64,000 nucleotides of DNA, from assembly GCF_000519325.1 (NCBI RefSeq), contig NZ_KI912613.1, positions 2,905,432 through 2,969,431 of the forward strand, given 5' to 3'. Of the stretch, positions 32,708 to 34,904 are shown piece after piece. The stretch's first letter is position 1. Each line of letters begins with the position of its first letter. Both the position numbers and the translations under genes were made by a program. Source of the DNA: Patulibacter minatonensis DSM 18081. Lineage in GTDB: Bacteria; Actinomycetota; Thermoleophilia; Solirubrobacterales; Solirubrobacteraceae. The notes beneath the pieces are model-generated. The model did no database searches. It was not told the origin of the DNA and saw only the letters and a list, made by a program, of their open reading frames with translations.

Positions 32708-33694
32708 TCAGCGCACGTCCAGCACGACCTTGCCGACGGCGCGCCGCTGGTCGAGCGTGAGGAGCGCGTCGGCCGCCTGCGCGAACGGGAACCGCGGGCC
32801 GACGATCGGGCGCACGGCCCCGGACGCCAGGAGCGGCGCGATCGCGTCGCCGATCTCCAGGTTCAGCGCGGGGTCCGACAGCGCGGCCTCGCCCCAGCCC
32901 GCGCCGACGACCTCGGTGTTCTTGAGCAGCAGCCGGTTGACCTTCACCGTCGGGATGCTGCCGCCGGTGAAGCCGACCACGACGACGCGGCCGCCGCGGC
33001 GCAGCGAGCGCAGGCTGTCGGTGAAGCGGTCGCCGCCGACGGGGTCGATGACGATGTCGACGCCGCCGCCGGAGAGCTCGACGGCCTCGTCCTTCCAGCT
33101 CCCGTCGGACCGCACGACCTCGTCCGCCCCGGCGCCGCGCGCGACCTGCTCCTTCTCGTCCGACGACACGACCGCGATCGTCCTCGCGCCGAGCCCCTTG
33201 GCGACCTGCAGCACGGCGGTCCCGACGCCGCCGGCCGCGCCGTGGACGAGCACGGTCTCGCCGGCCTTCAGCCGCCCGCGGGTCACGAGGCAGAAGTAGG
33301 CGGTGTGGTAGTTCAGGACCAGCCCGGCGCCCTGCGCGAAGTCGACGTCGTCCGGCAGCTTGAACGTGAAGAAGGAGGGGGCGACGGCGACCTCGGCCCA
33401 CCCGCCGAGGAGGCAGAAGCCGGCGACGCGATCGCCGGCGACGACGCTCGCGCCGGCCGGGGCGCTGCGCACGACGCCGCCGACCTCGCTGCCCGGCACG
33501 AACGGCAGCGGCGGCTTCATCTGGTACTCGCCGCGGGTCTGCAGGAGCTCGGGGTACGACACGCCGGCGGCGTGGACGTCGATGACGACGCCCTCGCCGG
33601 GGGTCAGCATGTGCGAGGCCTCCGGCTCGGGCAGCTCGACGAGCTCGAGTGCCGTCTCGGGGCCGGTCGTGTCCGTGATGTGGAGCGCCTTCAT
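32708..33694 (-). CDS. NADPH:quinone oxidoreductase (zinc-free MDR family)
   Basis: 328 residues of the medium-chain dehydrogenase/reductase family: MKALHITDTTGPE start, LPFVPGSEVGGVV, and the nucleotide-binding VLVHGAAGGVGTAVLQVAKGLGA. It lacks the structural-zinc Cys cluster of alcohol dehydrogenases, as quinone oxidoreductases do. A -10 box and a 16-bp perfect palindrome sit directly upstream, suggesting tight control by a repressor. Confidence 0.92.
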   Translation of the reverse strand: MKALHITDTTGPETALELVELPEPEASHMLTPGEGVVIDVHAAGVSYPELLQTRGEYQMKPPLPFVPGSEVGGVVRSAPAGASVVAGDRVAGFCLLGGWAEVAVAPSFFTFKLPDDVDFAQGAGLVLNYHTAYFCLVTRGRLKAGETVLVHGAAGGVGTAVLQVAKGLGARTIAVVSSDEKEQVARGAGADEVVRSDGSWKDEAVELSGGGVDIVIDPVGGDRFTDSLRSLRRGGRVVVVGFTGGSIPTVKVNRLLLKNTEVVGAGWGEAALSDPALNLEIGDAIAPLLASGAVRPIVGPRFPFAQAADALLTLDQRRAVGKVVLDVR

Positions 33695-33701
33695 GGGGAC
33701 G

Positions 33702-33707
33702 ACGCTA
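33702..33707 (-). promoter_or_regulatory. Leaderless-type -10 box (TAGCGT, minus strand) for the quinone oxidoreductase
   Basis: TAGCGT on the minus strand ends seven bases before ATG 33694 and overlaps the palindrome 33704-33719. Confidence 0.55.
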
Positions 33708-33719
33708 CCGGCCGGTAGC
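33704..33719. promoter_or_regulatory. 16-bp perfect palindrome overlapping the promoter (candidate operator)
   Basis: GCTACCGGCCGGTAGC is a perfect inverted repeat covering the -10 region of the oxidoreductase gene. A TetR/MarR-type repressor bound here would block RNA polymerase. No regulator gene is adjacent. Confidence 0.6.
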
Positions 33720-33853
33720 GCCCGGGTGGACCCCGCGGGCGGTCCGCCGTGCGTCCGGCGACGCGGTGCCGGTGTACGCGTCCCTGGACCGCTGCACCAC
33801 GCGGGGCGCGCGGCGTTCTCCCTCGGGCCCTTGGCGCGCCCCCGGAGCGGGCC

Positions 33854-33866: not shown

Positions 33867-34904
33867 GTGTCCCGTCCCGCTCACCCCTCCGGCGCCCCTC
33901 GCCCGGGAACGCGCCCCCGGCGGGCGCTCGTGCTCGCGGGGGTCCTCGTCGCATCCGCCGCGAGCACCCCGGCGGCGACCGCCGCCACGGTCGGGGACCC
34001 GATCCCCGTCCTCGCCTCCCTGGCCCGGCCCGCGACGATGCGTACCGCGGGCGTGGCACCGACGTCCACGCCGTTCGCGCCGGCGTCGACCACCACCACC
34101 GCCGCTGCGGCGACGACCGCCGACCGGTCGGCGACCGCCCCCGCGGACCCGTTCCTCGCGGCCGGGCTGCCGTCTCGCAAGGCGTGGACCCGCGCGGTGC
34201 GCCGGACCAGGTCGTGGGCGGCGTCGAAGGGCGCGCGTTTGCGCTTCTCTCTGCGGGTCGAGAAGCGGACCTGGTCGTTCCGGGGCAGCGAGACCACGAA
34301 CTCCAACAGCCTCATCAAGGCCACGGTCCTCGTGGCCTACGTGCGCCGCGCGAGCGTCCGCCGACGCGCGCTGACGCGGCAGGAGAAGGCGCTCCTGTCG
34401 CCGATGATCCGCCGCTCCGCGAACGAGCCGGTCAACCCGCTGCTCTCGCGGATGGGCGGCGTCGGGCCGCTCCGGGCCGTCGGCCGCCTGGTCGGTATGA
34501 CGCACTTCCGTCCACGGGCCGGGCTGTGGGGCGCCTCGCGGATCAGCGCCCTGGACGAGGTCCGGCTCTTCCACCGCCTGTGGCGGATCATCCCGCCGCG
34601 CCACCGCACGTACGCGCTCGGCCTGCTGCGGTCGATCGTCCCGTCGCAGCGGTGGGGCATGCCGCGGTCGGCGCCACGCGGCTGGCGCGTGACGTTCAAG
34701 AGCGGCTGGAACGGCAGCGGGCGCGTGAACCAGGCGATCCGCCTGAACTGCAAGGGCCGCGTGATCACGGCCTCGGTGCTCGTGGACGGCTCGAGCCACG
34801 GCGGCTCGATCGGCCTGGTCGAGGGCGCGGGGCGCCGGCTCTTCGCCCCTCTGCGTGCCCGCGGGGCGAAGGCCTGCTCGTCGGTCGTGCGGACCGCGGA
34901 CTGA
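33867..34904 (+). CDS. Secreted serine hydrolase, class A beta-lactamase/PBP-like
   Basis: 345 residues with a signal peptide (ALVLAGVLVASAASTPAATAA), a Thr/Ala linker, then motifs of the penicillin-recognising fold in the right order and spacing: S-L-I-K (Ser148-Lys151), S-A-N (184-186, the SxN loop) and K-S-G in FKSGWNG. The family includes class A beta-lactamases and murein-active enzymes. The ExxLN omega-loop of true class A beta-lactamases is not evident, so a peptidoglycan-related role is as likely as antibiotic resistance. Confidence 0.75.
   Translation: MSRPAHPSGAPRPGTRPRRALVLAGVLVASAASTPAATAATVGDPIPVLASLARPATMRTAGVAPTSTPFAPASTTTTAAAATTADRSATAPADPFLAAGLPSRKAWTRAVRRTRSWAASKGARLRFSLRVEKRTWSFRGSETTNSNSLIKATVLVAYVRRASVRRRALTRQEKALLSPMIRRSANEPVNPLLSRMGGVGPLRAVGRLVGMTHFRPRAGLWGASRISALDEVRLFHRLWRIIPPRHRTYALGLLRSIVPSQRWGMPRSAPRGWRVTFKSGWNGSGRVNQAIRLNCKGRVITASVLVDGSSHGGSIGLVEGAGRRLFAPLRARGAKACSSVVRTAD

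What the first reader, a model, noticed from the sequence alone, without database searches (positions are those of the whole stretch)
33702..33719. 16-bp perfect palindrome over a leaderless promoter of a quinone oxidoreductase gene
GCTACCGGCCGGTAGC overlaps the TAGCGT -10 box, which ends seven bases before the start codon. The geometry is that of a strong repressor site in a stress-induced quinone reductase gene, yet no regulator is next door, so the regulator acts in trans.
Basis: partly seen in the sequence, partly recalled or inferred. Interest (0 to 1): 0.5.

Follow-up and report, generated by a model that had tools for sequence, protein, structure and literature searches.

The report
Probable repressor site on leaderless promoter
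A perfect DNA palindrome sits on the promoter of an oxidoreductase gene in a Patulibacter-like bacterium; it is probably the docking site of a distant repressor of fatty-acid-type genes rather than of a quinone-stress sensor, which makes it a plausible but ordinary kind of gene switch.

Summary
The palindrome is real: 18 bp perfect (33703-33720), overlapping a TAGCGT -10 box that ends 7 nt before the ATG of a leaderless MDR ("quinone oxidoreductase-like") gene. Palindromes this long are not rare in the window at large, but among 110 leaderless promoters sampled it is the outlier (next 12 bp). It is not conserved base by base: the 89%-identical orthologue lacks it. Yet the core TACCGNNCGGTA recurs at the promoters of two congeneric orthologues (one exact, one with 1 mismatch). 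In one it is a perfect GGTACCNNNNGGTACC, a site also found at a TetR gene and at acyl-CoA dehydrogenase, kinase and wax-ester-synthase genes. That TetR is encoded in this genome, 1.27 Mb away, with the site at its own promoter; a kinase gene of another congener has the identical site/-10/ATG geometry. "Repressor acting in trans" is therefore supported and a candidate named; "quinone stress" is not. Weak points: this copy reads GCTACC/GGTAGC, one mismatch per half-site, scores weakly on the operator matrix, and in this genome the pattern is not enriched over its control (2 against 2). No binding or expression data. New member of a known kind.

The parts
33703..33720 (.). 18-bp perfect palindrome CGCTACCGGCCGGTAGCG; proposed TetR operator GCTACC-N4-GGTAGC at 33704-33719
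   Evidence: outlier among 110 leaderless promoters; core shared with congeneric orthologues
33702..33707 (-). -10 box TAGCGT, ending 7 nt before the ATG; its first four bases are the end of the operator
32708..33694 (-). target gene: 328-aa MDR protein (ADH_N, ADH_zinc_N), quinone-oxidoreductase-like, leaderless, start codon at 33694
33867..34904 (+). divergent neighbour, beta-lactamase-like protein (PF13354), leaderless box TAGGCT ending 7 nt before GTG, no palindrome of the same kind; shown for contrast

Best explanation
The palindrome is an operator for a TetR-family repressor encoded 1.27 Mb away (G000:C1, about 4210115-4210756, + strand), divergent from an acyl-CoA dehydrogenase gene that is followed by an APH-type phosphotransferase gene. 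The repressor dimer is proposed to recognise GGTACC-N4-GGTACC sites; here the site is the variant GCTACCGGCCGGTAGC, whose end also forms the -10 box TAGCGT. A bound dimer would cover the -10 box just upstream of the start of a leaderless transcript and block RNA polymerase; an acyl-type ligand would release it. Shown here: palindrome, leaderless promoter architecture, the TetR gene with related sites at its own promoter, recurrence of the core at two congeneric orthologues. Inferred: binding by this TetR, repression, the ligand.
For: (1) The core TACCGNNCGGTA is exact upstream of the G005 orthologue and within 1 mismatch upstream of the G003 orthologue, 2 or more mismatches in the other 31 of 34 upstream regions; simulated probability of one exact plus a second within 1 mismatch: 5e-6 for the 5 congeners (1 of 200,000 simulations) and 3e-4 for all 33 non-self regions. 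(2) The G005 copy is a perfect GGTACCGAGCGGTACC, one of 4 such sites in that genome (control 0), the others at a TetR/hydrolase pair, a wax-ester synthase/acyl-CoA dehydrogenase pair and an acyl-CoA dehydrogenase. (3) The TetR has clear orthologues in 5 of 8 genus genomes (209.6-481.7 bits; next best 107.8), G000 among them, each with a site of this type at its own promoter. (4) Pattern GSTACCNNNNGGTASC: 16 sites against 2 control matches in the 5 genomes with the TetR, 2 against 2 in the 3 without a clear orthologue. (5) The G001 kinase gene has the same geometry as here: site -25..-10, box at -13, no Shine-Dalgarno-like motif. (6) In 7 of 17 sites the outer half-site forms a TANNNT box, among them the TetR promoter of this genome on both strands. 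(7) The palindrome is the outlier of 110 leaderless promoters.
Against: This copy departs from the consensus at position 2 of both half-sites; matrix score 12.4 bits against 15.6-24.4 for the 15 training sites, and 5 places in 464 kb (itself included) score as high. In this genome the degenerate pattern is at control level, 2 against 2. The proposed recognition helix is identical in the five TetR proteins, so nothing explains a shifted preference. G001 has the TetR but no site at this gene; the G000 orthologue of the G001 kinase gene has no site. The closest orthologue, G007, lacks the mirror half, though G007 also lacks the TetR. The -10 consensus supplies GGTA on its own in many promoters (GG precedes TANNNT in 33 of 110), so the simulated probabilities are optimistic, and this core was one of several patterns tried.
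Confidence: 0.5

Rival explanations
1. Chance: in 74% GC DNA a -10 box preceded by GG happens to be mirrored by the bases upstream; no protein reads the palindrome.
For: Window-wide palindromes are at the expected level; no enrichment of near copies or of the exact 14-mer in the family (3 of 146 genomes, reversed control in 10); not in the 89%-identical orthologue; weak matrix score.
Against: Outlier among 110 leaderless promoters; same core at two congeneric orthologues.
Confidence: 0.28
2. It is an operator, but of another repressor with a GCTACC-N4-GGTAGC preference.
For: Perfect symmetry over 9 bp per half, including the bases in which it departs from the TetR consensus; the genome encodes many candidates (96 TetR and 42 MarR matches).
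Against: No other GCTACCNNNNGGTAGC exists in the genome, so such a regulator would not carry its own exact site; one 2-mismatch near copy lies 278 nt upstream of a TetR HTH, about what chance would give.
Confidence: 0.17
3. Quinone- or redox-sensing repressor (HxlR/QorR or MarR type) controlling a detoxifying quinone reductase.
For: The enzyme resembles quinone oxidoreductases.
Against: Below the curated cut-off; genes with the related sites are acyl-chain genes; none of 8 HxlR genes lies within 1.5 kb of any of the 36 near copies.
Confidence: 0.05

Closest known systems
TetR-family repressors of lipid catabolism in actinobacteria (KstR, KstR2, Mce3R, FasR, MftR)
   Same: TetR fold regulator next to acyl-CoA dehydrogenase genes, palindromic sites at its own and distant promoters; sequence matches to Mce3R, KstR2 (PDB chains) and to FasR, MftR, KstR models. 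Their biology is recalled, apart from MftR, seen in a listing (PMC8728441).
   Different: All matches are far below family cut-offs (best FasR 39.6 against 330 bits), so it is none of these; the site GGTACC-N4-GGTACC was not found in the paper listings.
Leaderless promoters with TANNNT -10 motif of Mycobacterium tuberculosis (PMC3898074, passages)
   Same: TANNNT box placed so that the start codon is the transcript's first codon; 67 such cases in 464 kb here.
   Different: Different class (Patulibacter-like, from relatives named); start sites here are inferred, not mapped.
LvaA/LvaC and ACAD10/ACAD11 4-hydroxyacyl-CoA pathway (PMC11342911, passages)
   Same: Kinase (APH type) and acyl-CoA dehydrogenase encoded together; in this genome they follow each other beside the TetR gene.
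   Different: Activity not tested; no orthology test against LvaA or LvaC was run; a role for the MDR gene is guesswork.
QorR (HxlR/DUF24 family) of Corynebacterium glutamicum (recalled; listing only)
   Same: Repressor of a quinone oxidoreductase-type gene.
   Different: Different regulator family; no HxlR gene near any near copy of the palindrome.

Membership tests
Regulon of the GGTACC-N4-GGTACC TetR | TetR orthologue present in the genome | tested here: met
   209.6 bits, 57% identity, next best in genome 107.8 bits
Regulon of the GGTACC-N4-GGTACC TetR | TetR gene has a perfect site at its own promoter in this genome | tested here: met
   GGTACCACGTGGTACC and weaker GGTACTGGCAAGTACC
Regulon of the GGTACC-N4-GGTACC TetR | perfect consensus site at the target gene in this genome | tested here: not met
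   GCTACCGGCCGGTAGC, one mismatch per half-site; 12.4 bits against 15.6-24.4
Regulon of the GGTACC-N4-GGTACC TetR | site at the orthologous gene in relatives that have the TetR | tested here: inconclusive
   G005 perfect, G003 one mismatch, G001 none; no clear orthologue of the gene in G006
Regulon of the GGTACC-N4-GGTACC TetR | binding and derepression | not testable with these tools
   needs gel shift and mutant
Leaderless TANNNT promoter | TANNNT ending 6-9 nt before the start codon, no Shine-Dalgarno-like motif | tested here: met
   7 nt, none found
PIG3 quinone oxidoreductase (TIGR02824) | score over the curated cut-off | tested here: not met
   221.1 against 296.8 bits
Quinone-sensing HxlR (QorR/YodB) regulation | HxlR gene within 1.5 kb of the site or of a near copy | tested here: not met
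   0 of 8 HxlR genes

The most novel reading that the evidence does not exclude
In the genus Patulibacter one TetR repressor controls acyl-chain genes through operators whose outer half-site can itself be the -10 box of the promoter (GG[TACCGT], GG[TACCAT], here GG[TAGCGT]). When a target promoter shifts between leadered and leaderless positions the operator re-forms beside the new -10 box, so that the regulatory link is kept by turnover of sites and not by conserved bases.
Probability: 0.3. Interest if true: 0.45.

Novelty: new member of a known kind. Interest (0 to 1): 0.33.

Why it matters
If right, it gives an unstudied bacterial group a repressor, its operator and a short list of target genes that gel shifts could test directly, and it moves an enzyme annotated as a quinone reductase towards acyl-chain metabolism. 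It would also be a case in which a regulatory link persists while both the promoter position and the operator bases change, so that a plain conservation test calls it chance.

Tried and rejected
Led nowhere or rejected. (a) Near copies as a regulon: 36 sites with up to 2 mismatches against 46 control; of the 35 contexts looked at, my crude gene predictor placed 26 inside genes. (b) The exact 14-mer in the family: 3 of 146 genomes, reversed control in 10; for the two outside hits only short stretches were printed, one of them off the site. (c) A 1-mismatch site at a short-chain dehydrogenase gene (L002): absent upstream of the 83%-identical G007 gene. (d) One-base spacing TACCG-N-CGGTA: 19 against 3 control in this genome, a different motif, left aside. 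(e) RNA hairpin or attenuator: rejected by reasoning, because a transcript that starts at the ATG does not contain the palindrome. (f) Papers on this site or on a Patulibacter TetR: nothing relevant in the listings. (g) A gene-neighbourhood link between this gene and acyl-CoA dehydrogenases: only 3 of 39 loci with short flanks have a match (L047 and L020 same strand, L061 opposite strand), so weak.

Rows dropped before counts. Of the 30 loci listed for the gene, L030 and L043 were left out of the upstream tables because the N-terminus was missing from the match; lower-ranked matches without a locus were not read. L046 and L051 are the same contigs as L017 and L019 and were left out; L054-L081 (other lineages or lower identity) were not used for the probabilities. 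The operator matrix left out the G002 site and the three sites at this gene. Gene calls come from a crude codon-GC script that mis-called some genes (for example at L195). The near copies were 35 of 36, one of them (2940447, inside the window) not being looked at.

Full report
Observation. The minus strand reads GGGC GCTACCGGCCGGTAGC GTCGTCCCC ATG AAG. The palindrome is 16 bp at 33704-33719 and extends to a perfect 18 bp at 33703-33720; TAGCGT at 33702-33707 ends 7 nt before the ATG at 33694. The gene encodes a 328-aa MDR protein (Pfam ADH_N, ADH_zinc_N) that resembles the PIG3 quinone oxidoreductase model but does not reach its cut-off (221.1 against 296.8 bits). The divergent neighbour at 33867 encodes a beta-lactamase-like protein with its own leaderless box TAGGCT. 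The genome is a single contig of 5.52 Mb; a genus member, G007, has the contig length and coordinates of a Patulibacter sp. record, so the organism is Patulibacter or close to it.

Leaderless? TANNNT ending 6, 7, 8 and 9 nt before a possible start occurs 30, 21, 6 and 10 times in 464 kb, against 0-4 at each other distance from 0 to 29 (1330 candidate starts, 327 predicted genes). Of 28 orthologue rows, own included, 19 have TANNNT within 20 nt of the start and 9 do not. The promoter is therefore typical, as in M. tuberculosis (PMC3898074, passages).

More than chance? In the window as a whole, no: 6 perfect palindromes of >=16 bp against 7.4 +- 2.9. At leaderless promoters, yes: of 110 boxes in 860 kb one carries 18 bp (this one) and the next 12; of 545 shifted control boxes one carries 16 bp and none 18.

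Conserved? Not base by base. The 89%-identical G007 orthologue has the TAGCGT box but no mirror half, and G004 and G001 have none either. The exact 14-mer is in 3 of 146 family genomes, its reversed control in 10, and near copies are not enriched in this genome (36 against 46). Up to here the finding looked like chance.

What changed the picture. A search for the core TACCGNNCGGTA in 40 relatives and this genome returned G005:C250:4182, which is 67 nt upstream of G005's orthologue of this gene. In all 34 upstream regions the best match is exact in G000 and G005, 1 mismatch in G003 and 2 or more in the other 31. In simulations one exact match plus a second within 1 mismatch has P = 5e-6 for the five congeners (1 of 200,000) and 3e-4 for all 33 non-self regions. 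These figures are optimistic: the -10 consensus supplies GGTA by itself (GG precedes TANNNT in 33 of 110 boxes), and several patterns had been tried.

The regulator. In G005 and G006 the extended site GGTACCNNNNGGTACC lies between a TetR gene and a divergent hydrolase gene, the latter named by eye. The segment VSKRTFYEHF, the likely recognition helix (recalled), is identical in all five. Each has a site of this type at its own promoter; G000 has GGTACCACGTGGTACC and a weaker GGTACTGGCAAGTACC. Pattern GSTACCNNNNGGTASC gives 16 sites against 2 control matches in the five genomes with the TetR (G000 2/2, G001 3/0, G003 3/0, G005 4/0, G006 4/0) and 2 against 2 in the three without a clear orthologue (G002, only 75% complete, has one perfect site). 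In G000 the two sites are the TetR promoter and this palindrome, but its control is also 2. Genes with sites, by Pfam: acyl-CoA dehydrogenase in G000 and G005, APH-type kinase in G001, wax-ester synthase in G005, an MDR gene in G003; by eye or by similarity: further acyl-CoA dehydrogenases in G001, G003, G005 and G006 and a short-chain dehydrogenase in G002. One G001 site (L222) appears to lie inside a gene. In this genome an APH-type gene follows the acyl-CoA dehydrogenase gene beside the TetR, as in LvaA/LvaC pathways (PMC11342911, passages).

Geometry. Relative to the start codon: G000 site -25..-10 with box at -13; G001 kinase gene site -25..-10 with box at -13; G005 site -69..-54 with box at -88; G003 site -91..-76 with box at -69. 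G000 and G001 are identical; the G005 and G003 promoters have leaders with Shine-Dalgarno-like motifs. In all four the site lies where RNA polymerase would bind or start. In 7 of 17 sites, this one included, the outer half-site itself forms a TANNNT box.

Against. This copy differs from the consensus at position 2 of both half-sites. A matrix from 15 sites gives it 12.4 bits; training sites have 15.6-24.4, the G005 and G003 copies at this gene, held out, 23.6 and 16.9; 5 places in 464 kb, itself included, reach 12.4. G001 has the TetR but no site at this gene, and the G000 orthologue of the G001 kinase gene has no site. The link may be weak, ancestral or lost in this very genome.

Verdict. A repressor in trans is supported and has a named candidate; quinone stress is not supported. 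That it works like a TetR-type operator on a -10 box, whichever regulator: about 0.67. That it belongs to this TetR's regulon: 0.5, because the strict consensus was tested and not met.

Noticed in passing
G000 whole genome, e.g. L124, L126, L127, L128, L132, L137, L138, L156: Palindrome TACCG-N-CGGTA (one-base spacer) occurs 19 times against 3 control in this genome, with no comparable excess in the 40 relatives searched (next G007, 7 against 3). Many sites precede thiolase-, dehydrogenase- or reductase-like genes (by eye) and one overlaps the -10 box of a TetR gene (L137); others are inside genes. Looks like a separate lipid-type regulon.
   Followed up: partly
G000:C1:2295778-2298391: Five TetR_N matches in tandem within 2.6 kb, an unusual run of TetR genes.
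   Followed up: no
L022 (G036) and L049 (Conexibacter MAG), just upstream of the -10 box of the orthologous gene: Other palindromes at the same gene in other genera: ACTTGAA-N6-TTCAAGT in G036 (MerR-like spacing, recalled) and TGAATCCGGATTCA in L049 (read by eye). The gene may be rewired to different regulators.
   Followed up: no
L002, around 1501-1514 (G000:C1:2202544-2202557): Near-palindrome CCCTACCGGCCAGTAGGG just downstream of a TAGCAT box of a short-chain dehydrogenase gene; not present upstream of the 83%-identical G007 gene.
   Followed up: yes
G021, G038, G039, G042, G045, G048 (places): TACCGATCGGTA occurs once in each of six genomes of three families of the order; a possible conserved operator.
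   Followed up: no
L185 (G007) and L186 (G002), around position 1501: ATACCGNNCGGTAT sites just upstream of a cytochrome P450-like gene beside a flavin-monooxygenase-like gene (names by eye): a different operator with the same core.
   Followed up: no
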